Source: an uncultured Oceanisphaera sp.
Lineage (GTDB): Bacteria; Pseudomonadota; Gammaproteobacteria; Enterobacterales; Aeromonadaceae
DNA: 64,000 nt
Direction: 5' to 3'
Assembly: GCF_947495715.1 (NCBI RefSeq)
Contig: NZ_CANLZU010000009.1
Span: 1 to 64,000 of the forward strand
The stretch's first letter is position 1. Every line of letters starts with the position of its first letter. The notes beneath the pieces were generated by a model. It saw only the letters and a list, made by a program, of their open reading frames with translations, was not told the origin of the DNA and ran no database searches. The position numbers and the translations under genes were made by a program. Positions 18,542 through 58,652 of the stretch are shown here, one piece after another.

Positions 18542-18900
18542 TACCAATCCCACTAAACAAGTGATCTATTTCATTTTCGTATATAAAGTCGAACAAAGGG
18601 CCCGCTCCGCCGACTCGCCGTAGACCCATCCCTGGGGGCTCAGCCGCGCCATCCGTGACGCGGATGGTCGGCTGAGCAAATCCCTTTGTCCTCCTGGATG
18701 CAGCAAAGTCGCCTGTTGGTGCTGCCTTCGGGCAACTCGGTGTTCAAAAAGAGGCAACAGAGAACGGCTCCCACGACCGTGAAATGCCATGGACGGCATT
18801 TCCGAGCCCCCACGGATGGGTTCATGGCGTGTCGTGGGAGGCGGCTGTGTTGCCTCTGATCTGAGGCCTTAATATGATCAGATCATTACTGGACTTGGTA
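18542..18900 (-). mobile_element. MITE-like element, copy A (359 bp)
   Basis: The termini are TACCAA...TTGGTA, with a 3-bp direct repeat TTA on both sides (18539-18541 and 18901-18903). No open frame looks protein-like. It is the reverse complement of the elements at 41872 and 58294 and has exactly the length of the latter. Internal inverted repeats include the GAGGCAACA/TGTTGCCTC arms and an AAATGCC/GGCATTT hairpin. The right-hand TTA is also the TAA stop codon of the minus-strand lipoprotein gene. No transposase is encoded, so it would depend on one in trans. Confidence 0.85.
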
Positions 18901-19671
18901 TTACTGGCTCAGCAGGGCTTCCATTGCCGCTTCGGCCTGCTCGCCACTCAGGGTGTCGAGGGCGGTCTTGGCCTTGGCGCTGGCTTGTGGCTCTGTGGTG
19001 GCAGCCGTTGGCGGTGTTGCCGCCTGTTTGGCGGTTTCCAGCGCCCTGATTTTGGCCTGAGCCGCTTTCAGTTGTGCCTGAGCGGCCTGCAATTCGTCTT
19101 GTGCCGACTTGGCCGCTCCCGATGTGGCATCGGGCGCTATTTTGGTCACGGCCGGCAAGGGAAGGGCGGGGGCTTTGGCGGCGGTAGCCAGCGAGATCGC
19201 CGGCGCTGTGCCATCATCCTGGCCCAGCCAGCTCTGCATGGCCTGGGGCCATACCGCGGCCTTGCCGGTATGAGACTCGGTAAACACCTTGGTCTGCTCG
19301 CCGTTATTGAGCAATGCCGCCATCTGGTTGGTTTGAGAGTTCCACACCAGGCTGGCGCGCTCCGACCCCTGTTGCGGATCATAGCGAGAAGCCAGATAAA
19401 ACAGCGGGCCTTCCTGTTGCAGTTCGCTGGCGGTGCGCAGCAGCTTGACCGTGGTGTCGTAGTTGGGACCGAGCAGGCCGGTCATTCGGGTCTTGATCAG
19501 CGGTTGTTCCAACAGGTTGTTGCTGTTGGGATCCAGCCCGACCATGGGCTTGAGCAGGGCCCACATTAACTGGCCCTGGCCCATGGCCAGCAGGGGGGCA
19601 ACACAACCGCTCAGCAGCAGGGTAAGTGCGGCCACTTTCAATAAGGGGTACAGACGCATCTGAGAATCCAT
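18901..19671 (-). CDS. Lipoprotein of unknown function
   Basis: I do not recognise a family. The N-terminus MRLYPLLKVAALTLLLSGC is a lipoprotein signal with lipobox LLSGC, so the mature protein starts at the Cys and is lipid-anchored. A globular region (about 25-145) is followed by a Pro/Ala-rich linker and a C-terminal Ala/Gln/Lys coiled-coil-like stretch (AQDELQAAQAQLKAAQAKIRALE). ATG at 19671 (256 aa) and ATG 19659, just before MRLY, are both possible; a TTG at 19689 preceded by AGGT is a third option. The stop codon TAA coincides with the target duplication of MITE copy A. Confidence 0.7.
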   Translation of the reverse strand: MDSQMRLYPLLKVAALTLLLSGCVAPLLAMGQGQLMWALLKPMVGLDPNSNNLLEQPLIKTRMTGLLGPNYDTTVKLLRTASELQQEGPLFYLASRYDPQQGSERASLVWNSQTNQMAALLNNGEQTKVFTESHTGKAAVWPQAMQSWLGQDDGTAPAISLATAAKAPALPLPAVTKIAPDATSGAAKSAQDELQAAQAQLKAAQAKIRALETAKQAATPPTAATTEPQASAKAKTALDTLSGEQAEAAMEALLSQ

Positions 19672-19972
19672 TTTAGATAATAAAAACAAGGGTTTACCTA
19701 AACGAGTCCAGGCTTGGATCTGGCTGCAAGATAAGGTGCGCGCAAGGTATCACAAATCGGTGAAAAAGCAGCCAAGGACACGAAAATAATTCGGCTCATT
19801 TTGGCGCTGTTCTTGATGACAACAGCGGGACTCATCATCGCATCATCCCCCGGTTCACCACAGGGTTGCGCCTTCATGAGCCCCCGGCTTCGGGCTTGAA
19901 TATGCGCGGACAGCGGGCATGATTTTGACGACACTTTCTGGCACTCTGGCCTTTTTTTAATGGAAACAAGCG

Positions 19973-20518
19973 ATGAGCACAGTAGTAAGAATGGCCCTGT
20001 TGATGTTGAGCCTGATGCTGGCCGGCTGTACCGACTCGACGTCGCGAGAGATCCATCTGCTGAGCGGCGCCAGTCCCGCCGAACTGGCCCGCAATCATCT
20101 GGCCGGGGCCGTGCTGGAACAGCAGGGGTTTACCGTGACCGTAGAAGAAGCCCGGCTGGGGCAAATCTGGCAGCGGCTGTGGGCCGGAAAGGCCGACGCC
20201 AGTCTGTCGGTGTGGCTGCCGGAGGCATCGGCGCCCTTTGTGGAACGCTTTTTCGAGCGGCTGGACGATCTGGGACCCAGAGACGGCGTGCTGGCGAGTG
20301 AGGCTGAGCACTGGCCGGCCCAGGACAGGCCCCATATTCTGGTGCGGCGCAGCCTGGAGCAGGATGCCCCAGAAGCCTTTGCTACCCTGATGGTGCTGCG
20401 CTGGCAGTCGAAGGATCTGGAACAGATCATTGCCAACTGGCAGCAAGGCGGTGACTGGCAACAGGCGGCCAGCCGCTGGCTGGAAGCCCACCCCGTCGAG
20501 CCGAACCCTGCACCCTAG
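19973..20518 (+). CDS. Truncated OpuAC/ProX-like substrate-binding lipoprotein
   Basis: This 181-residue protein begins with a lipoprotein signal MSTVVRMALLMLSLMLAGC (lipobox LAGC). Residues about 33-100 (ELARNHLAGAVLEQQGFTVTVEEARLGQIWQRLWAGKADASLSVWLPE) look like the first lobe of glycine-betaine/choline-binding OpuAC domains, including the DASLSVWLP segment. The last 50 residues (FATLMVLRWQSKDLEQIIANWQQGGDWQQAASRWLEAHP) look like the C-terminal helix of the same family. The central lobe expected in a roughly 280-residue ProX appears to be missing. No ABC permease or ATPase is adjacent. Function is unknown; the family assignment is a pattern judgement. Confidence 0.6.
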   Translation: MSTVVRMALLMLSLMLAGCTDSTSREIHLLSGASPAELARNHLAGAVLEQQGFTVTVEEARLGQIWQRLWAGKADASLSVWLPEASAPFVERFFERLDDLGPRDGVLASEAEHWPAQDRPHILVRRSLEQDAPEAFATLMVLRWQSKDLEQIIANWQQGGDWQQAASRWLEAHPVEPNPAP

Positions 20519-20575
20519 CCTTTATTCGCGCCCCAAGCCGAGCAGATGAGAGAGGACAGTCTTTTCCCCGGCCTT

Positions 20576-20581
20576 TATAAT
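20576..20581 (+). promoter_or_regulatory. Putative -10 element for purT
   Basis: A perfect TATAAT lies 33 nt upstream of the purT ATG in a 95-nt gap. A matching -35 is not clear. No PurR palindrome was recognised. Confidence 0.4.
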
Positions 20582-20613
20582 GGGGTCACATTTCGTAACA
20601 GGGACAGACCATA

Positions 20614-21795
20614 ATGACGACGCTTGGAACGCCTCTTTCGGCGACGGCAACCCGCGTATTGATGTGCGGCGGCGGTGAGCTGGGTAAAGAAGTGGTAATT
20701 GAACTGCAGCGCCTGGGTGTGGAGGTGATCGTGGTGGATCGCTATGCCAACTCGCCGGCCATGCAGGTGGCGCATCGTTCCCATGTGATCTCCATGCTGG
20801 ACGGTGCGGCACTGAGGGCGGTGATCGAGCAGGAGCAGCCGCACCTGATCGTGCCCGAGATCGAAGCCATTGCCACCGACACCCTGGCCGAGCTGGAGCA
20901 GGAAGGCTTTACCGTCATTCCTACCGCCCGCGCCACCCAGCTGACCATGAACCGCGAAGGCATTCGCCGTCTGGCCGCTGAAGAACTGGGCCTTGAGACC
21001 TCGCCCTACCGCTTTGCCGGTACTCTGGACGAGTTCAAGGCGGCGGTGGCCGAGATTGGTCTGCCCTGTGTGGTGAAGCCTGTCATGAGCTCATCCGGCA
21101 AGGGCCAGAGCACCCTGCGCCAGGAAAGTGACATTGAAGCCGCCTGGCAGTATGCCCAGGAAGGCGGCCGGGCCGGCGGTGGCCGGGTGATCGTCGAAGG
21201 CTTTGTCGACTTCGACTATGAAATCACCCTGCTGACCGTGCGCCATGCCAATGGCACCAGCTTCTGTGACCCCATCGGTCACCACCAGGAAGACGGCGAT
21301 TACCGTACTTCCTGGCAGCCGCAGGCCATGAGTGCGGCTGCATTGGCCGCGTCACAACGGGTCGCCGAGCAGGTGACCGGTGCCCTCGGCGGTTACGGCG
21401 TGTTTGGTGTGGAGCTGTTTATTCGTGGTGATGAGGTGCTGTTCAGTGAAGTGTCGCCCCGGCCGCACGACACCGGCCTGGTGACCCTGATTTCGCAGAA
21501 CCTGTCCGAGTTTGCCCTGCATGCCCGTGCCATTCTGGGCCTGCCCATTCCGCTGATTCGCCAGTATGGCCCCGCCGCCTCGGCGGTGATCCTGCCCGAA
21601 GGCCTGTCCTGCCAGACCCGCTTCGGTGGTTTGAACCAGGCGCTGGCCGAGCCGGATACCGAACTGCGTCTGTTCGGCAAGCCGGAGATTAACGGCCGCC
21701 GCCGCATGGGCGTGGCCCTGGCACTGGCAAACAGCATAGAGGCCGCCAAAACCAAGGCCAGCGAGTGTGCCGCCAAGGTCAGCGTCGAGTTTTAA
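20614..21795 (+). CDS. purT: Formate-dependent phosphoribosylglycinamide formyltransferase (GAR transformylase 2)
   Basis: This 393-residue ATP-grasp enzyme of purine synthesis uses formate and ATP to formylate GAR. The N-terminal Rossmann-like part has [20 protein letters not shown] (16-35) and [17 protein letters not shown]. The ATP-grasp core has [17 protein letters not shown] (about 150-166) and [26 protein letters not shown] (about 268-293). Length and motif order are those of PurT. It is transcribed alone between its own promoter gap and a terminator. Confidence 0.96.
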
Positions 21796-21830
21796 GTCGA
21801 TTTTTTACTGCCCCCCGGTATTCAGCATCA

Positions 21831-21856
21831 GGCGCCCGTTACGGGCGCTTTTTTAT
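21831..21856 (+). terminator. Terminator after purT
   Basis: A GCGCCCG/CGGGCGC hairpin with a three-base loop and T6 lies about 35 nt past the purT stop. Confidence 0.9.
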
Positions 21857-21919
21857 TGTGGTACAGGGAGTGGCGGCTGGGTGAGCCGATAGGGCCGTGA
21901 TTTACCAGGTACTTGGTGT

Positions 21920-22258
21920 CTAGGGTTGGCTTTGCCGTGGGTTGCGAGTAATAAACTGAATCGCCTCAGGGCTGAGCTCCCATACTGGTTCGCCGTGGAT
22001 GAGCGTTATTTTGAGCGGGATTTCATGCCACTGTTCCCGGTATAGAATATGGGCGGTGCCACTATGGCCACCCAACCAATTTCTAGACACTTCAACCTTA
22101 TCCACACTCAACTCCTGAGGTTGCAGGTTAAACTCCGAGTCTAATGCCCTTTGCAGCGAGGCTTTCACTGAGTGTGCAATCTCGGTGGTGGGTTTGCCAC
22201 AGGCCACCAGCAGCGCCATTGCCATGATCCCTGTTATCGCGGTCAGCAGACGTTTCAT
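21920..22258 (-). CDS. Small lipoprotein of unknown function
   Basis: This 112-residue protein starts MKRLLTAITGIMAMALLVAC, a lipoprotein signal with lipobox LVAC. The mature part (about 92 residues) has the look of a small mixed alpha/beta domain with a SVKASLQRALDSEFNLQ segment and no recognised motif. It lies 72 nt downstream of another unknown gene on the same strand and may share its transcript. No homologue family is recalled; the reading frame is supported by the lipobox and by the clean stop. Confidence 0.6.
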   Translation of the reverse strand: MKRLLTAITGIMAMALLVACGKPTTEIAHSVKASLQRALDSEFNLQPQELSVDKVEVSRNWLGGHSGTAHILYREQWHEIPLKITLIHGEPVWELSPEAIQFITRNPRQSQP

Positions 22259-22330
22259 TATGTTTATGTTCTCCTCAAATATGGCAAAGCGGCGGATAAA
22301 AGCGCTCCCCGGGCAGAACGCGTTGGCTTG

Positions 22331-23026
22331 TTATTCGCCGGTATCTTGTTGCCGGGGCGCTTGCCCGTAGGGCTGGGGGCTCTGCTCAAGGTCATGGTTA
22401 GCCGTAGGGAAGGTGGCGTACAAAAATACCGCCAGCCATAAAAATGCCCCTATTCTCAACCAGTTCGAATAGCCTTTACGCAGCGTAAACCAGGCAAAAA
22501 TAATCGGTAACATTACGATGCCGGCGCCGAGATAATGGCCCACTTTGCGTTGTTGTTGTTGTTGTTTTTGTTTTTGTTTTTGTTTTTGTTTTTGTGGCGT
22601 ATCCGGTTCGGAAATAGAGGCGGCATAACGTGTTTCTATAAACGCCCGCAAACAGATCACTTGATCAACAATGGCCTGATGCGCCAATGGCTCAGGATTG
22701 TCTACTGCTATCCAGTGTTCAATCTCGGCCTTGGTACGCGCAAAATAAGCGACAAAGTCAGGGTAATGCTCATGGTCGGCAAACAGCGTATTAATATCCG
22801 TTTTATCTGCTGTCAGCTGCTGAACATCATGGCCATTCACTGCAACAAAGACCGCCACCGCAGCATTCAGATCGGTTTGCACCTGTTCCAGAAAACTCAG
22901 GAAGCCCGGCGATTGCAGCTTTTTGTTCTGGCTGTTTGTTTTATCGATATCGAGCCGGGTGTCGATGCCGATGAGGGGGCCGATGGCCGGCTTTTCATCC
23001 TGGGGGTTGTGTTCGGTGCTTGGCAT
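22331..23026 (-). CDS. Unknown protein with polyQ/KQ tract and two C-terminal membrane helices
   Basis: This 231-residue protein has a soluble N-terminal region (about 1-140) ending in a KQKQKQKQKQQQQQ low-complexity tract (about 150-163), then two hydrophobic segments (about 170-188 and 200-218). ATG 23026 (MPSTEHN) is preferred. An extension to 23167 would add a proline-rich, non-protein-like leader. The DNA of the tract is a run of short tandem units that can change length in frame. No family is recognised. Expression with the downstream 112-aa lipoprotein gene is possible. Confidence 0.6.
   Translation of the reverse strand: MPSTEHNPQDEKPAIGPLIGIDTRLDIDKTNSQNKKLQSPGFLSFLEQVQTDLNAAVAVFVAVNGHDVQQLTADKTDINTLFADHEHYPDFVAYFARTKAEIEHWIAVDNPEPLAHQAIVDQVICLRAFIETRYAASISEPDTPQKQKQKQKQKQQQQQRKVGHYLGAGIVMLPIIFAWFTLRKGYSNWLRIGAFLWLAVFLYATFPTANHDLEQSPQPYGQAPRQQDTGE
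22545..22595. repeat. In-gene microsatellite (TTG and TTTTTG units)
   Basis: About five TTG units are followed by about five TTTTTG units on the plus strand. They encode the poly-Gln and Lys-Gln tract of the minus-strand unknown protein. Units are multiples of three, so slippage would change tract length without a frameshift. Confidence 0.85.
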
Positions 23027-23232
23027 ATGAATCTCTGTATTAAGTGACCGCGTTGTACAGGGCTTATTTTTCAGCTGCAGCATAATAGCAAACGGATGGC
23101 ATAACAGAGTCGTTTTGTTGCCGGTAAAGGGCGGAGGAGGGGGTAGTCTCTTGTTGGCTAATGGCACTCATCCTGCCAGCCTTACCCAATACTTGACTCT
23201 CGCCGTAGAGCGCTACATGGTGCGCTACATTA

Positions 23233-23270
23233 ATAAAAAAGGCATTAACCCTTTCAGATTAATGCCTTTT
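23233..23270 (-). terminator. Terminator after dusB-fis
   Basis: A perfect 12-bp stem AAAAGGCATTAA / TTAATGCCTTTT with a 10-nt loop ends in T tracts on both strands. It lies 26 nt past the fis stop and is probably bidirectional. Confidence 0.9.
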
Positions 23271-23295
23271 AATTCAATGCTTTAACTGATTGTTA

Positions 23296-23595
23296 TCAGT
23301 TCATGCCGTATTTCTTGAGCTTCTTGCGCAGGGTACCGCGGTTGATGCCCATCATGTTGGCGGCGCGAGTCTGGTTGCCGCGGGTGTACTGCATGATCAC
23401 GTCCAGCATCGGGGCTTCGACTTCGGCGAGGACCAACTCATACAACTCGGTTACTTCCTGACCATTAAGCTGGGACAGGTAATTGCGCAGGGCCTGATCG
23501 ACCGAGTTGCGCAGCGGGCGCTGAGTGGGCTGCTCGGAAGTCGGAGATTTAGTGGTAGTAACCAGTGCATCAGAAGTCGTAGTTTGTTCGAACAT
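23296..23595 (-). CDS. fis: DNA-binding protein Fis
   Basis: This 99-residue nucleoid and regulatory protein bends DNA and activates rRNA and tRNA promoters in fast growth. The C-terminal helix-turn-helix [24 protein letters not shown] is nearly identical to the E. coli one. The beta-hairpin arms lie near the N-terminus and the dimer core [25 protein letters not shown] at about 36-60. It lies 25 nt downstream of dusB, the conserved dusB-fis operon. Confidence 0.98.
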
Positions 23596-23620
23596 ATTCA
23601 GTCGGCTCTTCTTTTGTTCG

Positions 23621-24586
23621 TTAAGCTATATTCGCGAAATACTGCTCCAACGAGTCGAGCTGGTGCCCGGCTTCGTCGAGAGCGTTGAAATCACTGCGAA
23701 AGTCACGGCCCGCATCACTGCCTTGCAGATACCACCCCACATGTTTTCGGGCAATCCTTACGCCCATTACCTCACCGTAAAACGCATGCAGTGCGGCAAC
23801 ATGTTCCCGAATCATCGCCCGCTCCTGGTCCTTGGGAAGCGGTGCGGGAGTGGTACCCTGTTCAAGGTAGTGGCGGATTTCTCTAAAAATCCACGGCCGC
23901 CCCTGTGCAGCCCGGCCAATCATGATGGCGTCGGCGCCGGTATAATCCAGTACAAAACGCGCCTTTTCCGGGCTGTCGATATCCCCGTTGGCGATCACGG
24001 GAATAGAGACGGCTTGTTTTACTGCTCTGATGGTGTCGTATTCCGCCTCACCCCTGTACATGCAGGCCCGCGTGCGGCCATGCACGGCCAGTGCCCGGAT
24101 ACCGCTGTCTTCGGCGATACGCGCAATGTGCACGCCGTTGCGGTTGTCCGGATCCCAGCCGGTACGAATTTTCAGGGTGACCGGAACCGTTACTGCACTT
24201 ACCACGGCGCTGACAATCTCTTGCACCAGCGCCGGGAATTGCAGCAGGGCGGACCCCGCCATCTTCTTGTTTACCTTCTTTGCCGGGCAGCCCATGTTGA
24301 TGTCGATAATCTGCGCGCCCTGGTCCACATTGAACCGGGCCGCCTCGGCCATCAACGCCGGATCTGCCCCTGCAATCTGGACGGATCGGATACCCGTTTC
24401 TCCTTCATGATCCATACGCCGAAGGGACTTTTCGGACTGCCACACCCTGGGGTTGGACGACATCATTTCCGACACCGCCATTCCGGCTCCCATGCGCAGG
24501 CACAAGGTACGGAAGGGTCTGTCGGTTACACCGGCCATCGGTGCCACCAGCAGGGGGGTAGACAATTTGTAAGGACCAATTTCCAT
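23621..24586 (-). CDS. dusB: tRNA-dihydrouridine synthase B
   Basis: This 321-residue FMN enzyme reduces uridine in tRNA (position 17 in E. coli). The TIM-barrel motifs [13 protein letters not shown] (14-26), [29 protein letters not shown] with the catalytic Cys near residue 100, [17 protein letters not shown] and [14 protein letters not shown] are all present. It is the first gene of the dusB-fis operon, with a 317-nt AT-rich gap upstream that must hold the growth-regulated promoter. Confidence 0.96.
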
Positions 24587-24903
24587 GAGAATACGGCTAT
24601 CTCGGCTCAGGGTCGCGTATCTTACGCATTTTTTGAGGGGCTGAAAAGGTCACAAATTGAGCGGCGCATAATTTTTTATAAGTCAAGATGCTGGTGCATT
24701 TTTTATGCAGTTTCAGGGCACTTCAAGCGGCGGTAATGGCGTTGTTTGTACCGGCCTGCTCTGGTATGGCGTTCGCTCCATGGGTGATTTTCAGCGGGTT
24801 TATCCGGGTATCGGCCAAATGTTCCCATTTGGTTCCACAACGCCGAGGTTTGTACGGCCATGAAAAAGGCTCCCGCAGGAGCCTTTTCGATCTGCATGGG
24901 GGC
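24587..24903. other. 317-nt non-coding gap upstream of dusB-fis
   Basis: It contains the prmA terminator at its right side and the dusB-fis promoter region. Near 24660-24710 it is AT-rich and holds TGCATAAAAAATGCA (imperfect inverted repeat) and a TTGACT hexamer on the minus strand. No -10 at correct spacing could be assigned with confidence. No gene is seen. Confidence 0.5.
24862..24888 (-). terminator. Terminator after prmA
   Basis: An AAAAGGCTCC/GGAGCCTTTT stem with a CGCA loop and a T run on the minus strand begins 16 nt after the prmA stop. Confidence 0.88.
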
Positions 24904-25779: not shown

Positions 25780-26092
25780 GGCGAGGCTTCATCAAACGGT
25801 AAAGGGAGGATTCTAACATGAAACCGGCCGGTTTTAGCAGGCAAGCGATGCCTACAGAATAACGTCTTTTGTAGGCACTGTTGTAGGCGATGCTTCAGCT
25901 TCGCAATGTTGCGCAGCAACATCCTGCAATGCGGCGCAGCCACATCCCGGCTCCGGTATTACCTATATCACCGCATTATCATCACGATTCATCACACAGG
26001 GGGAGCCTGTACATCGGAACCTGCTCTGCAGGTTTTCGCGGCTGAAGCCGCGACTACATTCGTGCAGTATGCAGTATTGGCTGTTCATGTAC
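25780..26092. repeat. Non-coding gap with clustered short palindromes
   Basis: There is no gene in these 313 nt. Perfect hairpins occur at 25906-25922 (ATGTTGC-GCA-GCAACAT), 26018-26034 (AACCTGC-TCT-GCAGGTT) and 26037-26052 (CGCGGCT-GAA-GCCGCG). GTAGGC is repeated at 25871 and 25883. It resembles degraded REP/BIME-like intergenic repeats between panF and prmA. Confidence 0.5.
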
Positions 26093-28313: not shown

Positions 28314-28393
28314 GGGGTTTCTCTTCAGGTGGGCTTTGAGCCGTTATTCTAACGGCAAAGGACGGTGAGGGAAAAATATGGATATTTGAAATC

Positions 28394-28581
28394 TCGAACA
28401 AAGGGTCTGCTTCTCCGACCCGCTCAAGCACCTCCTTGTGGCGCTCAGCACATGACATCCCTGTCATGTGATAGACGGTGAAGCAGATCCCTTTGCCCTC
28501 CTTGATGCTCCGGCGTTGCCTGTCGGCGCCGTCTGCGGGCAACTCGGACCTTGAGAAGAGGCGGCTGTGTTGCCGCTGAGA
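28394..28581 (-). mobile_element. Decayed MITE-like element, copy D
   Basis: The sequence from CGAACAAAGGG to GGCTGTGTTGCC aligns collinearly with copy A (18590-18855), with scattered differences and a deletion of roughly 90 nt. The deletion removes the central hairpin arm. The TACCAA/TTGGTA ends are no longer recognisable. It lies in the 3' flank of accC and has the same orientation as that gene. Confidence 0.7.
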
Positions 28582-40632: not shown

Positions 40633-41742
40633 ATGGCTTTAAGCAGTACCCAGGAAATCATCGACGATATCCGTCAGGGTAAAATGGTCATCCTGATGGA
40701 TGATGAAGACCGGGAAAACGAAGGTGACTTGATCATGGCCTCCGAGCATGTACGCCCGGAAGACATCAACTTCATGGCCAAATACGGCCGGGGGCTGATT
40801 TGCCTGACCCTGACCGAAGCCCGTTGCCGCCAGCTGGACATTCCCCAGATGGTCAGCCGCAACACCGAGCAGTTCTCCACCGCCTTCACCGTGTCCATTG
40901 AAGCCGCCGAGGGCGTGACCACCGGTATTTCTGCCGCCGATCGGGCTCATACGGTACAAACCGCCGTGGCCAAGGACGCCAAGCCGGCCGATCTGGTACA
41001 GCCGGGGCATATATTTCCGCTCAAGGCTCAGAACGGTGGCGTGCTGACCCGTGCCGGTCATACCGAAGCGGGCTGTGATCTGGCCCGTCTGGCCGGTCTG
41101 GAAGCCTCGTCGGTTATCGTCGAGATCCTCAACGAAGACGGCACCATGGCCCGACGTCCGGATCTGGAAGTCTTCGCCCAGGAGCACGACATCAAGCTCG
41201 GCACCATTGCTGATCTCATCGAATACCGTAACCAGAACGAAACCACCATAGAGCAGGTGGCGCGCTGTAACCTGCCCACCGAATACGGCGACTTCGAGCT
41301 GGTGACCTTTCGTGACACCATCGACAATCAGGTGCATTTCGCACTGAAAAAAGGTGAGATCAAGGCCGACGAGCCGGCGCTGGTGCGGGTACATATTCAC
41401 GATATGTTCACCGATGTGCTGATGACCGACCGTCACTCTGCCCGCACCTGGCCGCTGGGCAAGTCGATGGCCCGCATCGCCGACGAAGGCGGCGTGCTGG
41501 TGATCCTGGGGCGGGAAGAAACGCCGGATCATCTGCTGTCGCTGGTGCGCCAGTTCGAGGCGGTGGATCGCGGTGAACGGCTCGAAGGCGCCAAGCGCCA
41601 GGGTACCTCTCGCCGGGTCGGCGTGGGCTCGCAGATCCTGCAGGCCATGGGCGTGGGCAAGATGAAGCTGCTCAGCTCACCCAAACGTTACCACGCGCTG
41701 TCCGGCTTCGGCCTGGAAGTGGTCGACTACATCATCGACTGA
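40633..41742 (+). CDS. ribBX: 3,4-dihydroxy-2-butanone-4-phosphate synthase with degenerate GTP cyclohydrolase II domain (RibBX-like)
   Basis: This is a 369-residue protein. The RibB domain (1 to about 200) is intact, with [16 protein letters not shown] (acidic metal loop), the [16 protein letters not shown]-like [23 protein letters not shown] and [14 protein letters not shown]. The RibA-like domain (about 205-369) has lost the zinc motif CLTGDxxxSxxCDCG of GTP cyclohydrolase II; the region reads [23 protein letters not shown], without any Cys. Such RibBX variants are known in Proteobacteria and lack GCHII activity, so a separate ribA is expected elsewhere. It ends before a strong terminator. 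Confidence 0.92.
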
Positions 41743-41784: not shown

Positions 41785-41871
41785 TTGCGACCCCTTCTGG
41801 TGTCCTTCTGCTTTTTCCGCTGTTCCCGCCCGCAATGTCTTCCTGTAAATCCGCCCTGCCGGAATGAATAA

Positions 41872-42364
41872 TACCAATCACAGTAATGATCTGATCATAT
41901 TAAGGCCTCAGATCAGAGGCAACACAGCCGCCTCCCACGACACGCCACTGATAAAAGACACTCACCGTTGCAGCCTGCTGCGAACATTCACTGGATGTTC
42001 GGTCAGGCTGCAACCGTTCATCACGGCGAGGCAAGCTCGCCCCCTGAGGGCTCAGGAAATGCCTTCTGACCGCCAGGGAGGGCGGGAATGCCGGAACGGC
42101 AGGAGCATTTTCCGGCCCTGGCATTTCACGGTCGTGGCAGTCGATCTCTGTTGCCTCTTCTCGAGTACCGAGTTACCTGTAAACGACGCCAACAGGCAGC
42201 TCCTTGGCATCTGGGAGGATAAAGGGATCTGCTCCGCCGACCCTCCGCGCCAAGGATGGCGCGGCGGAGCCTACACGGATGTATTCACGGCGTGTCGGAG
42301 GAGCGGGCCATTTGTCCGACCTTTGCAGAGCACCGAATAGATCAGTTAGTTAATCAGTTTGGTA
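41872..42364 (+). mobile_element. MITE-like element, copy B (493 bp)
   Basis: The termini are TACCAA...TTGGTA with a TAA target duplication at 41869-41871 and 42365-42367. It shares both ends and most of its interior with copies A and C but carries about 134 nt extra in the centre. The extra part holds additional inverted repeats (GTTGCAGCCTG/CAGGCTGCAAC). It has no protein-like frame. It lies between ribBX and siaA, co-oriented with both, and forms part of the DNA that splits the rib block. Confidence 0.85.
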
Positions 42365-42484
42365 TAAGCCCATGCTGCTTGCAGGTTTTTACCGGCAAAT
42401 TTCCATTCGCCGATTGAGTTTTTATGCGGTTGCGTCACAATGACGGCTTCGTATGAGTTATTCCGACACAGCACAAGGATGCCA

Positions 42485-51023: not shown

Positions 51024-51049
51024 AAAGCCAGCAGTCGCTGGCTTTTCAT
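51024..51049 (+). terminator. Hairpin between nusB and thiL, abutting the thiL start
   Basis: An AAAAGCCAGC/GCTGGCTTTT stem with an AGTC loop ends about 8 nt before the thiL ATG. It looks like a terminator for nusB. It also occupies the place where the thiL ribosome-binding site should be. Confidence 0.75.
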
Positions 51050-51053
51050 TTAT

Positions 51054-52025: not shown

Positions 52026-52501
52026 GAAAACCCGAGCTGGCGGCGCTGAAGCTGTCCAACCCGCTGCACCTGCTGGCCCTGGGCTTTGGCACCGGCCTGA
52101 GCCCGGTAATGCCGGGCACCATGGGCACCCTGGCGGCCATTCCGCTCTACTTGCTGATCCAGGGGCTGTCGCCGCTGTGGTATCTGCTGATCCTGGTACT
52201 GGGCTTCGTGGCCGGTATCTGGATTTGCAATGCGGCCACCAGGGCCATTGGTCGTCACGATCATGGTGCCATCGTCTGGGACGAGATCATCGGCTTTGGC
52301 ATCACCATGTTTGCGGCGCCAGCTGGAGCCGTGTGGATACTGGCGGGGTTCGTGCTGTTCCGGTTTTTCGATATCGTCAAACCCTGGCCCATTCGCTGGT
52401 TCGATCGGCGGATACACGGCGGTTTCGGCATCATGTTCGATGACGTGATCGCCGGGCTGTTCGCTCTGGCCTGCTTGCAGGGGCTGGCGGCACTGCTCTA
52501 A
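52022..52501 (+). CDS. pgpA: Phosphatidylglycerophosphatase A
   Basis: This 159-residue inner-membrane lipid phosphatase makes phosphatidylglycerol from its phosphate. LSNPLHLLALGFGTGLSPVMPGTMGTLAAIPLYLLIQ (about 10-46), IVWDEIIGFGITMFAAP (about 80-96) and FRFFDIVKPWPIRWFDRRIHGGFGIMFDDVIAG (about 112-144) are diagnostic. The ATG lies within the thiL stop (ATGA), so translation is coupled. It is the last gene of the conserved block. Confidence 0.96.
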   Translation: MRKPELAALKLSNPLHLLALGFGTGLSPVMPGTMGTLAAIPLYLLIQGLSPLWYLLILVLGFVAGIWICNAATRAIGRHDHGAIVWDEIIGFGITMFAAPAGAVWILAGFVLFRFFDIVKPWPIRWFDRRIHGGFGIMFDDVIAGLFALACLQGLAALL

Positions 52502-52507
52502 TTACCG

Positions 52508-52548
52508 GCCGCGCAGCTGTTCTGGCTGCGCGGCACTCTTCCTTTCTG
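52508..52548 (+). terminator. Probable terminator after pgpA
   Basis: A 9-bp GC-rich stem with a 9-nt loop is followed by the pyrimidine-rich CTCTTCCTTTCT rather than a clean T run. Confidence 0.55.
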
Positions 52549-52759
52549 TCAAACTTTCAAATCTCGTCCAGCCTCATCACACTCGCTTATCCTCCATCGT
52601 CTGCCGCTTTGCGTTCGTTATTTCCTTTTTAGAGTCAAAAGCCTACTTTTTATCGTCAGTCTTTCGGCTTCCATGATACCTCTAGTCATAAACACCATTG
52701 ATAATTTTATACTCGAAACATCTTGCTGATTTTGTGAGTTACATCCCTATATCTGCGGT

Positions 52760-52788
52760 TTGTTTTGGCGTAAAGACAGGCTTACAAT
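52760..52788 (+). promoter_or_regulatory. Sigma-70-type promoter for the peptide ABC operon
   Basis: TTGTTT, 17 nt, TACAAT. It lies about 125 nt upstream of the ATPase start, in AT-rich DNA. Confidence 0.55.
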
Positions 52789-52912
52789 GGCGGTCTAATG
52801 TTGCTTTTTTGTTGCCGGCTGTCCATGCTCGGCAACGACGCACCGGCTGCCATTGAGGCCTGGTCGGTTGAAGGATGCGCAAGCGAGGGCCCGGGCCCGA
52901 TTAAGGATGAGC

Positions 52913-54652
52913 ATGTCCCTGTTAGCAATAAAACATCTGCGAATCGAATATCCGTCCCGTCATGGCGTGATGGCCGCGGTGGATGACCTTTCCTTCAGTA
53001 TCGAAAAAGGCGAAATTCTCGGCGTGGTCGGGGAGTCCGGCGCCGGCAAGTCGACCATCGGCAATGCGGTCATCGACCTGTTGAGCCCGCCCGGCAGCAT
53101 TGCCAGCGGCGAGGTTTATCTGGACGGCGAGAAAATATCCGATCTGAATCCGACCGAGATGCGGGCCATTCGCGGCAGTCGTATCGGCTTTATCTTTCAG
53201 GATCCCATGACCTCGCTCAATCCGCTGCTGACGGTGGAATATCAGATGGTCGAGACCCTGCTGGCCAATACCGACATCAGCCGGGAGCAGGCGCGCCAGA
53301 AGGCCATTTCTTTACTCGACGCCGTGGGCATTCCTCAGCCGGAGCTGCGCATCAAACAGTATCCGCATCAGTTTTCCGGCGGCATGCGCCAGCGAGTGGT
53401 GATTGCCATCGCTCTGTCCTGCGACCCGGAACTGATCATTGCCGACGAGCCGACCACGGCGCTGGATGTGTCGATTCAGGATCAGATCCTGACCCTGATC
53501 CGCAACCTGTGCAAAGAGCGCAACGTGGGCTGCATGCTGGTGACCCACGACATGGGGGTGGTGTCCAACGTTACCGACCGGGTGGCGGTGATGTATCGCG
53601 GCCGGCTGATGGAAATCGGCCCCACCGGACAGGTGCTGGGCGCGCCCAGCCACGATTACACCCGCAGCCTGATCTCCGCCGTGCCCCGTTCCGACGTCAA
53701 GCTGCAGCGCTTTCCGCTGGTGTCCTACATCGAAGATGCCAAGGAAAAGGTCAGTCTGGATCTCAAACATCACTGGCTGGGCCAGAATCAGGAGCAGCGT
53801 GACTATACTGGGCCGTTGTTGCGGGTAGAGCACTGCAACCTGCGCTTCGTCACCAAGGATTCGCTGTTTGCTTCCCGCCGCCAGTATCTGCAGGCCACCA
53901 AGGATGTGAGCTTCGAGATTAACGAAGGTGAAACCTTCGGTCTGGTGGGGGAGTCGGGCTCCGGCAAGTCCACCATAGCGCGGGCCATTACCGGCCTGTA
54001 TCCGCCCGATACCGGCAAGATCTGGTTCGAGGGCATCGAGCTCACCGCCATCAAACGCGAGCAGCAACGCCGCCCCTTGCGCCGGCAGATGCAGATGGTG
54101 TTTCAGAATCCCTATTCTTCGCTCAATCCGCGTATGCGGGTGGCGGACATCATTGCCGAGCCGATCCGTTTTCACCATCTGGCCGAGAATGAGGCGCAGA
54201 TCCGCGGCATCGTCGACGATTTGCTCGATTATGTCGGCCTGGGGCGGGCGGCGGGACTTAAGTTTCCCCACGAGTTTTCCGGTGGTCAGCGCCAGCGCAT
54301 TTCCATCGCCCGCGCCCTGGCCACCCGGCCCCGGCTGCTGATTTGCGATGAACCTACCTCGGCGCTGGATGTGTCGGTACAGGCGCAAATATTGAATCTG
54401 CTCAAGGATTTGCAGGATGAGCTGAAGCTGACCATGCTGTTTATCAGTCACGATCTGCCGGTGATCCGCCAGATGTGCGATCGCATCGGGGTGATGAAAA
54501 AAGGCACCCTGGTGGAGGTGGCGCCCACCGAGCAGTTGTTTACCGATGCGGCGGATCCCTACAGCCGCTCGCTGATTGCGTTAATGCCCGAATTCAGGGG
54601 CATGTCACGGGAAGGCCTGGACATTTCCACTACCCAAGCGGGCCAACATTAA
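52913..54652 (+). CDS. Fused dipeptide/oligopeptide ABC transporter ATPase (DppD-DppF type)
   Basis: This is a 579-residue protein with two nucleotide-binding domains in tandem. Domain 1 has Walker [10 protein letters not shown] (about 39-47), signature FSGGMRQRV and Walker [13 protein letters not shown]. Domain 2 (from about 300) has [19 protein letters not shown] and [12 protein letters not shown]. Each ends in an oligopeptide-ABC C-terminal segment ([12 protein letters not shown] and [12 protein letters not shown]). It energises peptide import. AAGGA at 52903 selects ATG 52913. It is the first gene of an ATPase-binding protein-permease-permease run. Confidence 0.92.
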
Positions 54653-54672
54653 TCATGTCAACGGAGTGTTTC

Positions 54673-56226
54673 ATGAAATCAGGACTCAACAAAGTAACGG
54701 CGGCGCTGCTGGCGGCCGGTCTGGCATTCAGTGTGCAGGCGGCGGATATCACCATCGCCTACGACGCGGATCCGGTGTCGATGGACCCCCACGAGCAGTT
54801 GTCCGGTGCCACCATGGAAATGTCTCACCTGCTGTTCGATCCCCTGGTGCGCTGGACCAAGGACTTCCAGTTTGAAGCGCGACTGGCAGAAAAATGGGAG
54901 CGCATCGATGAAAACACCCTGCGTTTTCACCTGCGCCAGGGCGTCAAGTTTCACAGCGGCAACGAGCTGACCGCCGACGACGTGGTCTGGACCTTTCAGC
55001 GTCTGAAACAGTCGCCCGACTTCAAGGCCATTTTCGAACCCTTCAGCGCGGCCAGCAAGGTAGACGACCATACGGTGGACCTGGTCACCAAGGGACCCTT
55101 TCCGCTGGTGCTGAATACCGCGACCTATCTGTTTCCGATGGACTCGACGTTCTACAGCGGCACCACCGACGACGGCAAGAACAAGGGCGAGGTGGTCAAA
55201 CACGGCAGCTCTTTTGCCTCTACTCATCCCTCGGGCACCGGTCCCTTCAAGCTCAAGTTTCGCCAGCAGGGCGTCAAGGTGGAATACGAGCGTAACGCCG
55301 ATTACTGGGATGCGAACTCGCCCGGTAACGTACAGAACATGACTCTGGTGCCGATCAAGGAAGACGCCACCCGGGTGGCGGCGCTGCTGGCCGGTGACGT
55401 GGACTTCATCAAGCCGGTGTCGCCCAACGATCACGCCCGGGTTGAAGCTGCCAGTGACGTCAAGCTGGTGACCGAGGCGGGTACCCGCATCATTACCTTT
55501 CAGCTGAATCAGGAACGCTTCGAGCCGTTCAAGGATGTACGGGTACGGCAGGCGGTCAACTACGCCATCAATCAGGACGGTATCGTCAAGCGCATCATGC
55601 GCGGCTTCGGCACCACCGCCGGTCAGCAGGCGCCGGCCGGGTATGTGGGCCACAACCCCGAGCTGACGCCGCGTTACGATCTGGACAAGGCGAAGCAACT
55701 GATGGAGGAGGCCGGCTATCAGGATGGCTTCAAGATCAGCATGATTGCGCCCAATAACCGCTACGTGAATGACTATCGTATTGCCGAGGCGGTCAAGGCG
55801 ATGCTGGCACGCATCAACATAGAGGTGGATCTCAAGACCCTGCCGGTGGCCCAGTACTGGCCGGAGTTCGACAAGTGCGCCGCCGACATGCTGATGATTG
55901 GCTGGCATTCTGACACCGAAGACACCGCCAACTTTTCCGAGTTCCTGACCATGACCCGTAATGAGGAAACCGGTCGCGGCCAGTACAACTGCGGTCATTA
56001 TTCCAACCCCGAGCTGGACGCGCTTATCGAGTCCGCCAACCTGGAAACCGACGGTGACAAGCGTGACCTGATGTTGCAGCGGGCCGAGAAAATCCTCTAT
56101 GACGATGCCGCCTTCGTGCCGCTGCACTGGCAAAATCTGGCCTGGGGCGCCCGCAACAACGTGGCGGCCGAGCCTGTCGTCAACGCCATGGACTTCCCGT
56201 ATCTGGGTGACCTGGTGGTCGAATAA
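54673..56226 (+). CDS. Periplasmic peptide-binding protein (SBP family 5)
   Basis: This 517-residue protein has the signal peptide MKSGLNKVTAALLAAGLAFSVQA and mature start ADITIAYDADPVSMDPHEQLSG. The family 5 signature is around LAEKWERIDENTLRFHLRQGVKFHSGNELTADDVVWTFQRL (about 77-117), and VRVRQAVNYAINQDGIVKRIMRG (about 293-315) is also typical. It delivers di- or oligopeptides, or a related ligand, to the permeases downstream. GGAG at 54663 selects ATG 54673. The 3' flank carries a G-tract/C-tract repeat that separates it from the permease genes. Confidence 0.92.
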   Translation: MKSGLNKVTAALLAAGLAFSVQAADITIAYDADPVSMDPHEQLSGATMEMSHLLFDPLVRWTKDFQFEARLAEKWERIDENTLRFHLRQGVKFHSGNELTADDVVWTFQRLKQSPDFKAIFEPFSAASKVDDHTVDLVTKGPFPLVLNTATYLFPMDSTFYSGTTDDGKNKGEVVKHGSSFASTHPSGTGPFKLKFRQQGVKVEYERNADYWDANSPGNVQNMTLVPIKEDATRVAALLAGDVDFIKPVSPNDHARVEAASDVKLVTEAGTRIITFQLNQERFEPFKDVRVRQAVNYAINQDGIVKRIMRGFGTTAGQQAPAGYVGHNPELTPRYDLDKAKQLMEEAGYQDGFKISMIAPNNRYVNDYRIAEAVKAMLARINIEVDLKTLPVAQYWPEFDKCAADMLMIGWHSDTEDTANFSEFLTMTRNEETGRGQYNCGHYSNPELDALIESANLETDGDKRDLMLQRAEKILYDDAAFVPLHWQNLAWGARNNVAAEPVVNAMDFPYLGDLVVE

Positions 56227-56231
56227 GATCC

Positions 56232-56346
56232 GGGACTTGGGATTAGGGACTTGGGACTAGAACTTCACACCTAAGGTCCTGAGTCGGTGGGCTGGCAGGG
56301 CAATCCCTTCCAGTCCCCAATCCCTATTCCCAAATCCCTGTTTTTC
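56232..56346 (+). repeat. G-quadruplex-type tract with downstream complementary C-rich tract
   Basis: Four GGG runs with 4-nt loops (56232-56255) begin 5 nt after the binding-protein stop. A C-rich tract with TCCCCAATCCC-type heptamers at 56310-56339 is followed by TTTTT. The layout repeats that found after glyA. The arms can pair as a long imperfect hairpin, so it may act as a partial terminator or stability element within the operon. Confidence 0.7.
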
Positions 56347-56377
56347 GATTCCCATTCCCGCAGTTGGAACTTAAAAC

Positions 56378-57352
56378 ATGCTTACTTTTTTACTGAAACG
56401 GCTGTTCCAGGTACTGATCGTGATGTTCGTCATCAGTCTGGTGGCGTTTTCGATTCAGGACAATCTGGGCGATCCGCTGCGTGAGCTGGTCGGCCAGTCG
56501 GTATCGGAAGAGGTGCGTCAGCAGATGCGTACCGAGATGGGGCTGAACGATCCCTTTCTGGTCAAATACGGGCGTTTTATCGGTCATGCCCTGCAGGGAG
56601 ATTTTGGCACCTCCTACTTTTACAAGCAGCCGACTCTGGAGGTGATTTTCGAGAAATTGCCGGCCACGCTGGAGCTGGTGTTCTGTGCCAGCGTGCTCAT
56701 TATTGCGCTCAGCATTCCGTTGGGGGTCTATTCTGCCATCAAACCCCGTGCGTTTTTGTCCCGGGCGGTGATGGGTATCAGTATTATCGGGATTTCGGTG
56801 CCGGTGTTCCTCACCGCCATTTTGCTGATGTATGTGTTTTCCATCGAGCTGGGCTGGCTGCCCGCCTATGGCCGGGGCGAGTTGACCAGTCCGTTGGGCT
56901 GGGAGTCGGGCCTGTTCAACTGGCAGGGCTTTCGCAACCTGATACTGCCGAGCATTGCACTATCGTCGATCATGCTGCCGCTGTTCATTCGGCTGGTACG
57001 TTCCGAGATGCTGGAGCAGTTGAGCGCGGAATACGTCAAGTTTGCCTGGGCCAAGGGCCTGGACAAATACCGTATCTGGTTTATCCATGCGCTGAAAAAT
57101 ACCCTGCTGCCGCTGATCACCGTGGGCGGGGTGCAAATCGGCACCATGGTGGCCTACACCATACTGACCGAAACCGTGTTTCAGTGGCCGGGTATCGGGC
57201 TGCTGTTTCTCGATGCCATCAACCGGGTGGATACGCCCCTGATCACCACCTACGTGATTTTTGTCGGCTTTATCTTTGTGGTGACCAACACCATCGTCGA
57301 TTTGATCTACGGTCTGATCAATCCGACCGTTAACCTGGCCGCTAAGGGGTAA
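56378..57352 (+). CDS. Peptide ABC transporter permease, DppB type
   Basis: This 324-residue inner-membrane permease has an N-terminal membrane helix (9-29) and the usual DppB lead-in DNLGDPLRELVGQSVSEE...MGLNDPFLVKYGRFIGHALQGDFGTSY. The permease EAA loop reads EYVKFAWAKGLDKYRIWFIHALKNTLLPLIT (about 227-257). It starts about 150 nt after the binding-protein gene and abuts the second permease (2 nt gap). Confidence 0.93.
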   Translation: MLTFLLKRLFQVLIVMFVISLVAFSIQDNLGDPLRELVGQSVSEEVRQQMRTEMGLNDPFLVKYGRFIGHALQGDFGTSYFYKQPTLEVIFEKLPATLELVFCASVLIIALSIPLGVYSAIKPRAFLSRAVMGISIIGISVPVFLTAILLMYVFSIELGWLPAYGRGELTSPLGWESGLFNWQGFRNLILPSIALSSIMLPLFIRLVRSEMLEQLSAEYVKFAWAKGLDKYRIWFIHALKNTLLPLITVGGVQIGTMVAYTILTETVFQWPGIGLLFLDAINRVDTPLITTYVIFVGFIFVVTNTIVDLIYGLINPTVNLAAKG

Positions 57353-57354
57353 GC

Positions 57355-58293
57355 ATGATGACGACAGACGTTAATCCGAGCCGCTGGGCCCGCTTCAGGC
57401 AGTCGGACTTTTTGTATCACTTTCGGCGTGACAGAGTGGCCATGTTCAGCTTTGCGGTGTTTGTGGCCCTGCTGGCTGCCGCCTTGCTGTCGCCGATTAT
57501 CGCGCCGCACAATCCTTACGATCTGGCGACCATCGACATTCTGGACTCGGAGCTGCCGCCGAGCTGGCTGGACATGGGCGACGAGCGTTTTCTGCTCGGT
57601 ACCGATGTGCAGGGGCGGGATATTCTGAGCACCATGCTCTATGGCTCGCGGGTGTCCTTGATCATCGGCCTGGGCGCGGTGGCGCTGCAGCTGGTGATTG
57701 GCATAGTAGTAGGCCTGTCGGCCGGTTACTTCGGAGGCCGTATCGACAATTTCCTGATGCGGATAGCCGATGTGCAGCTGTCGTTCTCGACCATGATGGT
57801 AGCCATTATCGTATCGGCGGTGTTTCAGGCCACTCTGGGCGCGGACTTTTATGCCGAGTATGCGGTGCTGATGCTGGTGGTGATTATCGGCCTGGCCGAA
57901 TGGCCCCAGTATGCGCGCACCATTCGTGCCACCGTACTGGCGGAAAAGAAAAAGGAATACGTGGAGGCGGCGCAGGTGATGGGCTTCAAGTCGATGCGCA
58001 TCATGTTTCGCCACATACTGCCCAACTGCCTGTCGCCGATACTGGTGATATCCACGGTGCAGGTGGCCAACGCCATCATGAGTGAGGCGGCGCTGTCGTT
58101 TCTGGGCCTGGGCATGCCGGTAGACAAACCCTCGTTGGGCTCCTTGATCAGCATGGGCTTCAGCTACATTTTCTCCGGCTCCTGGTGGATTACCGCCTTT
58201 CCCGGTATCTATCTGGTGATACTGGTGCTGGTGATCAACCTGCTCGGCGACTGGCTGCGGGATGTGTTCAACCCCAAGATTTACAAAGGGTAA
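57355..58293 (+). CDS. Peptide ABC transporter permease, DppC type
   Basis: This 312-residue permease has the EAA motif EYVEAAQVMGFKSMRIMFRHILPNCLSPI (about 200-228) and the typical SEAALSFLGLGMPVDKPSLGSLI (about 241-263). Two adjacent ATG codons (57355 and 57358) can start it. It completes the importer. Its TAA stop codon (58291-58293) is exactly the left target duplication of MITE copy C, so the element begins on the next base. Confidence 0.93.
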   Translation: MMTTDVNPSRWARFRQSDFLYHFRRDRVAMFSFAVFVALLAAALLSPIIAPHNPYDLATIDILDSELPPSWLDMGDERFLLGTDVQGRDILSTMLYGSRVSLIIGLGAVALQLVIGIVVGLSAGYFGGRIDNFLMRIADVQLSFSTMMVAIIVSAVFQATLGADFYAEYAVLMLVVIIGLAEWPQYARTIRATVLAEKKKEYVEAAQVMGFKSMRIMFRHILPNCLSPILVISTVQVANAIMSEAALSFLGLGMPVDKPSLGSLISMGFSYIFSGSWWITAFPGIYLVILVLVINLLGDWLRDVFNPKIYKG

Positions 58294-58652
58294 TACCAAT
58301 TTGAATAAAGATCTGATCATTTTTAAACCCGAGCTCAGAGGCAACACAGCCGCCTCCCACGACACGCCATAAACTCATCCCTGAGGGCTCGGGAAATGCC
58401 GTCCATGGCATTTCACGGTCGTGGCAGTCGATCTCTGTTGCCTCTTCTCGAGCACCGAGTTGTCTGCAGGCGGCGCCAACAGGCAACTCCTTGGCATCAG
58501 GGAGGATAAAGGGATCTGCTCCGCCGACCCTCTGCGCCAAGGATGGCGCGGCGGAGCCTACATGGAGGTATTCACGGCGTGTCGGCGGAGCGGGCCATTT
58601 GTCCGACCTTTGCAGAGCAACCAAATAGATCAATTATTTAATCCCTTTGGTA
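58294..58652 (+). mobile_element. MITE-like element, copy C (359 bp)
   Basis: TACCAA...TTGGTA termini are flanked by TAA on both sides (58291-58293 and 58653-58655). The length equals copy A. Internal pairs include AGAGGCAACA (58337-58346) with TGTTGCCTCT (58436-58445), which encloses AAATGCC/GGCATTT (58394-58400 and 58407-58413). A second GC-rich hairpin at about 58514-58557 has GCTCCGCCG/CGGCGGAGC arms. It has no coding potential. It is inserted on the stop codon of the upstream permease gene. Confidence 0.88.

What the first reader, a model, noticed from the sequence alone, without database searches (positions are those of the whole stretch)
18542..58652. Family of non-coding MITE-like elements with TAA target duplications
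Three intact copies (18542-18900 minus, 41872-42364 plus, 58294-58652 plus) share TACCAA/TTGGTA termini, perfect 3-bp TAA (TTA) target duplications, a GATCTGATCAT motif near one end and strong internal hairpins. Copies A and C are both exactly 359 bp. They encode nothing protein-like and no transposase is in the window. I do not recall a named family with this description. Duplications of 3 bp of this type are made by some IS5-group transposases, so a trans-acting element elsewhere in the genome is a reasonable guess.
Basis: partly seen in the sequence, partly recalled or inferred. Interest (0 to 1): 0.75.

Follow-up and report, generated by a model that had tools for sequence, protein, structure and literature searches.

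The report
Transposon carrying paired GGA-hairpin RNA modules
Short non-coding mobile elements, scattered in scores of copies through this bacterium's genome, carry two head-to-head copies of a folded RNA module whose loops look like landing sites for CsrA, a global regulator of gene expression.

Summary
In detail: three intact non-coding elements share TACCAA/TTGGTA ends and perfect TAA duplications. A decayed fourth copy (28389-28562) was missed.

At least 61 complete copies were found in this draft genome; 23 of 23 genus genomes match. The duplication is TNA in general (47 of 61 identical). Relatives show single-TAA empty sites for copies A and C. The likely mobiliser is IS630-like (HTH plus DDE_3), not IS5-group: 1.1-kb insertion sequences with the same kind of ends also sit in TNA (35 of 49 identical). 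No close copy of that transposase was found in this genome.

Copies A and C contain two inverted Y-shaped modules, B one; a covariance model built only from other families finds them (E 5e-13 to 2e-18). The module has a strongly covarying stem and two hairpins with loop C-ANGGAN-G. It also occurs in 15 other genera and resembles the Yersinia repeat YPAL/RU-2. GGA is nearly invariant in all four loops while stems change in compensation, and G-U wobbles favour the GGA strand in both inverted modules.

The loops fit the CsrA/RsmA site. CsrA binding is my preferred, unproven function (about 0.35-0.4); gene orientation does not support it.

The parts
18542..18900 (-). Element A, 359 bp; target duplication TTA at 18539-18541 and 18901-18903
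   Evidence: empty site with a single TAA in G001 (L280) and G008 (L281)
18596..18685 (-). GGA-hairpin module of element A (strand given is the GGA strand)
   Evidence: model R1, 75.4 bits, E 2.2e-17
18758..18849 (+). second, inverted GGA-hairpin module of element A
   Evidence: model R1, 62.6 bits, E 5.2e-14
28389..28562 (-). decayed partial fourth copy without recognised ends
   Evidence: blastn with element C 73% over 176 columns; sequence
28404..28490 (-). weak module match in the decayed copy
   Evidence: model R1, 25.8 bits, E 2.4e-4
41872..42364 (+). Element B, 493 bp, with an extra internal stretch; target duplication TAA at 41869-41871 and 42365-42367
   Evidence: element absent from the matching intergenic place in G001 (L274) and G015 (L276), junction not resolved to the base
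42223..42312 (+). GGA-hairpin module of element B (only one found by the model)
   Evidence: model R1, 79.3 bits, E 2.1e-18
58294..58652 (+). Element C, 359 bp; target duplication TAA at 58291-58293 and 58653-58655
   Evidence: empty site with a single TAA in G015 (L254)
58345..58437 (-). GGA-hairpin module of element C
   Evidence: model R1, 58.8 bits, E 5.2e-13
58510..58599 (+). second, inverted GGA-hairpin module of element C
   Evidence: model R1, 76.5 bits, E 1.2e-17

Best explanation
A MITE family moved in trans by an IS630-like (HTH + DDE_3) transposase. SHOWN: the ends TACCAA-N-TGATC, non-coding interior, 3-bp TNA duplication, single-TAA empty sites for copies A and C. INFERRED: that the IS630-like transposase moves them. 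The typical 359-bp element contains two inverted copies of a separate, older, class-wide structured module related to the Yersinia repeat YPAL/RU-2: a stem whose sequence drifts but stays paired, capped by two hairpins with loop C-ANGGAN-G about 23 nt apart. SHOWN: covariation, near-invariant GGA loops, wobble pairs favouring the GGA strand. Because the two modules point opposite ways, a transcript across the element from either side would contain one GGA pair. INFERRED, my preferred function (0.35-0.4 on its own): the GGA hairpins bind CsrA/RsmA, so the copies act as dispersed decoys or draw neighbouring transcripts into Csr control.
For: Mobility: 171 ends, 0 control; 61 complete elements, 60 of 61 with TNA on both sides, 47 of 61 identical against 18.2 expected by shuffling (many loci had been picked with a pattern that prefers T.A flanks, which does not favour identical N). 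Empty sites: A in G001 and G008, C in G015. Transposase: 79 loci of the relative in named genomes, 49 with both ends found, 49 of 49 flanked by TNA and 35 of 49 identical (18.2 expected); Pfam HTH_33 and DDE_3; two intact copies in G014 and one in G004 of the same genus. Module: model R1 from 29 units of 13 genomes outside the family, 26 of 35 pairs with compensated double changes, finds 5 modules in A-C and 145 of 150 scored candidates in the genome. In 45 genus copies GGA is kept in 45, 44, 45, 45 of 45 at the four loops; 23 of 24 motif columns are at least 97% conserved against 77 of 271 others; 29 of 68 pairs show compensated double changes. Wobbles: free modules 40 G-U on the GGA strand to 9 on the other; inside the element 31 to 14 in module 1 and 45 to 7 in module 2, each on its own GGA strand. 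Loop and pairing fit the CsrA SELEX consensus RUACARGGAUGU and its hexaloops (passages of PMC7652899); spacing 23 in 26 of 29 and 24 in 1 of 29; csrA in 17 of 17 module-bearing genomes.
Against: No binding or expression data. Free modules do not favour sense orientation: the left gene runs with the GGA strand in 10 of 25 testable loci, and in G517 9 of 9 counted loci have both neighbours antisense to it. Sub-threshold Rfam Ysr224 matches to the modules of L301 and L319 lie on the CATCC strand, not the GGA strand. csrA is so widespread in this class that its presence says little. Very stable stems may hinder CsrA (PMC7652899 passage says stable structure might be disadvantageous). No close transposase copy was found in the window's own genome (best 29% identity). 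Wobble counts are not independent: by column pair the contrast is 8/16 against 14/5, p 0.014. Model R1 found two modules in only 5 of 61 complete elements and at least one in 41, in a list cut at 150 scored candidates.
Confidence: 0.8

Rival explanations
1. The modules are RNA hairpins that stabilise or terminate neighbouring transcripts, as proposed for YPAL, without CsrA; the GGA loops are conserved for another RNA-binding factor or fold.
For: Strong stems; insertion right at stop codons is enriched (14 of 46 against 9.3% of available TNA; 20 of 57 against 108 of 987); a review passage says YPAL might influence stability of upstream transcripts (PMC2229807).
Against: A plain terminator or stabiliser needs no near-invariant ANGGA in every loop and no strand preference for the GGA strand.
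Confidence: 0.3
2. The modules are single-stranded DNA hairpins recognised by a transposase that acts on one strand, as REP sequences are by RAYT proteins; the GGA loops are its recognition sites.
For: Dispersed palindromic repeats; wobble asymmetry would also arise for folded single-stranded DNA; free copies without recognised IS630-like ends exist (17 of 20 fetched).
Against: The loop and spacing fit CsrA rather than a known RAYT signal (recalled); no such enzyme was looked for. In the element both strands carry one module.
Confidence: 0.2
3. The elements are moved by an IS5-group transposase.
For: Some IS5-group transposases duplicate TNA (recalled).
Against: The insertion sequences found with the same kind of ends and TNA flanks are IS630-like; six PF01609 matches in this genome lack such ends within 4 mismatches.
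Confidence: 0.04
4. Stem covariation reflects hairpin-templated DNA repair between arms, not selection on RNA.
For: Wobble intermediates are rare overall, 18 G-U and 24 A-C among about 1,900 pairs common to both strand folds, while compensated changes are many.
Against: Templated repair should not make wobbles prefer the GGA strand, and the preference flips between the two inverted modules; it does not explain invariant loops.
Confidence: 0.15

Closest known systems
YPAL / RU-2 (Yersinia palindromic repeat, about 168 bp)
   Same: The RU-2 sequence printed in PMC2759123 (passages) contains, read by eye, the same pair of hairpins: CAAGGATG and CATGGATG 24 nt apart, joined by a CTCGAGCC stretch.
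   Different: YPAL has one module, no TACCAA ends and duplications of 3 to 26 bp (PMC2229807 passage); the elements here are bounded by IS630-like ends with TNA duplications, and copies A and C hold two inverted modules.
Rfam RF02770 Ysr224 (Yersinia sRNA)
   Same: Sub-threshold matches: L301 51.3 bits, E 1.4e-9; L319 38 bits; window copy B 33.1 bits, E 0.0011.
   Different: All are below the gathering score of 70; the Rfam model covers one arm and the core and does not include the long closing stem.
RUP of Streptococcus pneumoniae (moved by IS630-Spn1)
   Same: Small non-coding element thought to be moved by an IS630-family transposase (PMC2229807 passages).
   Different: RUP is 107 bp and targets TA; these duplicate TNA and carry structured modules.
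CsrA/RsmA-binding sRNAs (CsrB, RsmY, RsmZ)
   Same: Pairs of short hairpins with GGA in the loop; loop matches the SELEX consensus (PMC7652899 and PMC4383904 passages).
   Different: Dispersed transposon-borne copies rather than single sRNA genes; binding untested; no Rfam Csr/Rsm family hit in the window.

Membership tests
MITE | short, non-coding, terminal inverted repeats, target duplication, many copies | tested here: met
   empty sites
MITE | ends shared with an autonomous element | tested here: met
   IS630-like insertion sequences with the same end pattern; in the window's own genome no close copy was found
IS630 family (partner transposase) | HTH plus DDE_3 transposase | tested here: met
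   alignment, 31 residues between the presumed second D and E
IS630 family (partner transposase) | TA dinucleotide duplication (recalled definition; RUP passage) | tested here: not met
   49 of 49 TNA on both sides, 35 of 49 identical 3-bp flanks; hence called IS630-like. Single-TAA empty sites were shown for MITE copies A and C, not for the insertion sequence itself
IS5 group | IS5-type (PF01609-like) transposase with these ends | tested here: not met
   6 PF01609 matches in this genome, no such end within 4 mismatches; other IS5-type Pfam families were not searched
YPAL / RU-2 | paired GGA-loop hairpins on a palindromic stem | tested here: met
   by-eye comparison with the printed RU-2 sequence
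YPAL / RU-2 | about 168 bp, duplications of variable length at sites of dyad symmetry | tested here: not met
   element lengths 129-543 bp and TNA flanks
Ysr224 (RF02770) | score at or above the gathering threshold | tested here: not met
   best 51.3 of 70 bits
CsrA/RsmA-binding RNA | ANGGA in a hairpin loop closed by C-G, in pairs | tested here: met
   CANGGANG in 45, 43, 42, 45 of 45 copies at the four loops; spacing 23 in 26 of 29 free modules
CsrA/RsmA-binding RNA | binds CsrA/RsmA | not testable with these tools
   needs a binding assay
CsrA/RsmA-binding RNA | GGA strand is transcribed | tested here: inconclusive
   wobble asymmetry supports it; gene orientation does not and Ysr224 matches lie on the other strand

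The most novel reading that the evidence does not exclude
A class-wide RNA module that binds the global regulator CsrA/RsmA has been captured by a transposon as an inverted pair, so that any insertion, in either orientation, puts a CsrA-binding pair into a transcript crossing it; well over a hundred modules per genome act as a dispersed CsrA decoy and as a mobile way to recruit genes into the Csr network. YPAL of Yersinia would be a member.
Probability: 0.35. Interest if true: 0.85.

Novelty: new variant of a known kind. Interest (0 to 1): 0.62.

Why it matters
If the GGA hairpins bind CsrA, a long-puzzling class of bacterial intergenic repeats (YPAL and its relatives) gains a function, and transposition becomes a route by which genes join, or buffer, a global post-transcriptional network. 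Apart from that, the work ties this MITE family to an IS630-like transposase with an unusual 3-bp TNA duplication and shows that a separate structured repeat can ride inside a MITE. The main claim is directly testable by a simple binding assay.

Tried and rejected
IS5-group partner: PF01609 search of the own genome gave 6 matches, none with these ends within 4 mismatches. Phage and plasmid origin: element C has no match among phages or plasmids; the 58-nt module core has none among phages, one 25-base match on a Halomonas plasmid, and the strict pattern hits 2 stretches of viral contigs. A long autonomous copy inside the own genome: 20 regions around ends that had no listed partner all gave short elements or, for L104, ran off the contig. 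Whole-element RNA strand preference: none, 18 G-U against 24 A-C; it appears only when the two inverted modules are counted apart. Known Rfam RNA: nothing at gathering score except a tRNA in the window. Sense orientation of free modules: not supported. Literature: (10 of 10). IS630 with TNA as whole words gave 2 papers, seen only as listings. The combined CsrA/YPAL/Ysr224/miniature-inverted-repeat search gave 5 papers; the two that contain CsrA are the Rfam 12 paper and an sRNA survey, and the passages seen do not connect CsrA with such repeats. The 2006 YPAL paper was not held and is known only through passages of other papers.

Rows left out: one search kept 49 of 79 loci (27 without both ends, 3 duplicates). 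One search tested 46 of 61 elements; 15 were called inside an ORF by a crude gene caller, among them copy C, which really sits at a stop codon. Alignment A2 holds 45 of 50 non-redundant copies picked from 78 full-length matches (5 of unusual length dropped). Alignment A3 holds 29 modules; copies near contig ends, without the closing GGTC, duplicates and a few others were not used. could judge 25 loci.
Full report
Observation. The three elements are present as described. The end pattern occurs 171 times in the genome with 0 in the reversed control. A script that paired ends gave 61 complete elements, 129-543 bp long and 23,889 bp together, about 0.65% of 3.65 Mb; most are 349-362 or 406-543 bp. 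In 60 of 61 both flanks are TNA, and in 47 of 61 the two are identical, against 18.2 expected when flanks are shuffled. Many of these loci were picked with a pattern that prefers T.A flanks, so the TNA share is partly selected; identity of the middle base is not. A fourth, decayed copy lies at about 28389-28562.

Spread. A DNA search with copy C finds matches in 23 of 23 genomes of the genus, this one included, and in 38 of 75 of the family; of 37 genomes of one sister genus only 1 matches. One genus member, G004, carries a contig of the same length with the same transposase place as Zobellella denitrificans ZD1, so the window belongs to a Zobellella-like genus (inference). The end pattern occurs in 71 of 394 genomes of the order; where fetched loci outside the genus show both ends, most such elements are about 160-200 bp.

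Empty sites. At copy A, G001 and G008 read ...CTGAGCCAGTAACGG... with one TAA, the stop codon of the gene. At copy C, G015 has one TAA where this genome has the element between two; G001 also lacks it, but its sequence around the stop differs. Copy B is absent in G001 and G015, but the junction could not be read to the base.

Stop codons. TNA always reads TAA or TGA on one strand. An ORF of at least 100 codons ends exactly at the duplicated triplet in 20 of 57 testable elements, against 108 of 987 control stops nearby. With a crude gene caller, 14 of 46 elements outside ORFs sit on a stop codon, where 9.3% of available TNA triplets are stops (p 5e-5; 15 elements called inside ORFs were left out). 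Target choice and selection cannot be told apart.

Transposase. One locus in another family of the order, L128, has both ends 1.1 kb apart and two ORFs between them. They match HTH_33 and related HTH families, and DDE_3. Relatives occur in 22 of 35 chosen genomes, including intact copies in G014 (two) and G004 (one) of the same genus; the own genome has only 29%-identical matches. Draft assemblies often lose multi-copy insertion sequences, so absence is not proof. In 79 loci from named genomes, 49 had both ends under a rule that ignored the flanks: 49 of 49 are flanked by TNA and 35 of 49 identically, against 18.2 expected. So an IS630-like transposase duplicates TNA rather than the TA that defines the family (recalled). 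That it moves the MITE is inferred from shared ends and duplication.

Inside the element. The 45 aligned genus copies fold to a common structure with compensated double changes at 29 of 68 pairs. The element resembles its own reverse complement at about 62%, because it holds two inverted copies of one unit, each with two small hairpins. A strict pattern for the unit (GACACGC-N8-CATCC-N-TG-N3/4-GCTC) hits 17 of 369 genomes of the class, this one included, that is 16 genera of 272 and 15 other than this one, with 0 control matches. In those genera the unit is a 58-nt core on a stem of about 20-30 bp whose sequence differs from copy to copy while staying paired. In an alignment of 29 such units from 13 genomes outside the family, 26 of 35 pairs show compensated double changes.

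A covariance model of these 29 units finds five modules in the window's copies A, B and C (58.8 to 79.3 bits, E 5e-13 to 2e-18) and a weak one in the decayed copy. In the genome it gives 145 matches among the 150 candidates scored of 2,384, so counts are lower bounds: 46 lie in the 61 complete elements, 18 in other element pieces, 81 elsewhere. Of 20 of these 81 fetched, 17 show no element end within 4 mismatches, and L350, L359 and L362 look, by eye, like free modules on their own stems. Of 61 complete elements, 41 have at least one match and 5 have two, in this truncated list.

GGA loops. Read on the proper strand each hairpin has the loop C-ANGGAN-G. In the 45 copies GGA is kept in 45, 44, 45 and 45, and CANGGANG in 45, 43, 42 and 45. 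Of the 24 motif columns 23 are at least 97% conserved, against 77 of 271 others; the N positions and stems vary. In 26 of 29 free modules the two motifs start 23 nt apart, in 1 of 29 24 nt, and in 2 both motifs were not found. One loop and a strict spacing were partly built into the search pattern for free modules; the second loop was not, and the 45 genus copies were chosen by DNA similarity, not by this pattern.

Strand test. In 32 free modules of 12 genomes the stems contain 40 wobble pairs that are G-U on the GGA strand and 9 that are G-U on the other; 7 genomes lean to the GGA strand, none the other way. Inside the element module 1 has 31 against 14 in favour of its GGA strand and module 2 has 45 against 7, though they lie in opposite directions. 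Counted by column pair the contrast is 8/16 and 14/5, p 0.014. For the whole element there is no net preference, 18 to 24, as expected if the two cancel. A mutation bias along the DNA would not flip between the modules; folding of GGA-strand RNA, or of single-stranded DNA, would.

CsrA. The SELEX consensus for CsrA is RUACARGGAUGU, mostly in six-base loops with the AC and GU paired, and one dimer can bridge sites 10-63 nt apart (PMC7652899, passages). Free modules such as that of L313 read GUACAGGGAUGU. All 17 genomes with strict module matches have csrA, which is weak evidence since csrA is common in this class. Against it: in 25 testable loci the gene to the left runs with the GGA strand in only 10, and in G517 9 of 9 counted loci have both neighbours against it. 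The Ysr224 matches of L301 and L319 are on the CATCC strand. I therefore hold CsrA binding at 0.35-0.4.

Known relatives. The RU-2/YPAL sequence printed in PMC2759123 has the same two hairpins (by eye). YPAL is described as intergenic in Yersinia, with duplications of 3-26 bp, and possibly affecting RNA stability (PMC2229807 passages). A family survey reports strong structural conservation for it (PMC2267715 passages), and an sRNA survey lists Ysr224 among the most prevalent annotated sRNAs (PMC9029176 passages). Searches for CsrA together with YPAL, Ysr224 or MITEs found no paper that links them (library limited to open licences). The new points, as far as these searches go, are the IS630-like partner with TNA duplication, the inverted pair of YPAL-like modules inside a MITE, and the CsrA-type loops with their strand-specific wobbles.

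Noticed in passing
window 28389-28562: Decayed fourth copy of the element, with a weak module match and no recognised ends.
   Followed up: partly
window 18901-18903 and 58291-58293: In copies A and C the duplicated TAA is the stop codon of the adjacent ORF; stop codons are enriched as insertion sites in the genome.
   Followed up: yes
window 40730-40830 minus: Sub-threshold Rfam match to the Vibrio antisense RNA V_AS9, 44.9 of 50 bits.
   Followed up: no
L275 (G008), downstream of the ORF ending at the copy C site: Short tandem run of TACCTTTTG/TACCTTTTAT-like units at the place where this genome has element C.
   Followed up: no
L339 (G706): A module whose second hairpin is interrupted by another strong palindrome; neighbouring loci of G706 contain GTAGATCCACGCC-type repeats that I recall from Stenotrophomonas REPs.
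   Followed up: no
L147, L149 and L128: The IS630-like transposase is split over two overlapping or adjacent reading frames, as if made by frameshifting.
   Followed up: no
L255 (G008), near the copy B site: A different insertion with a single TACCAA-type end lies at the corresponding intergenic place.
   Followed up: no
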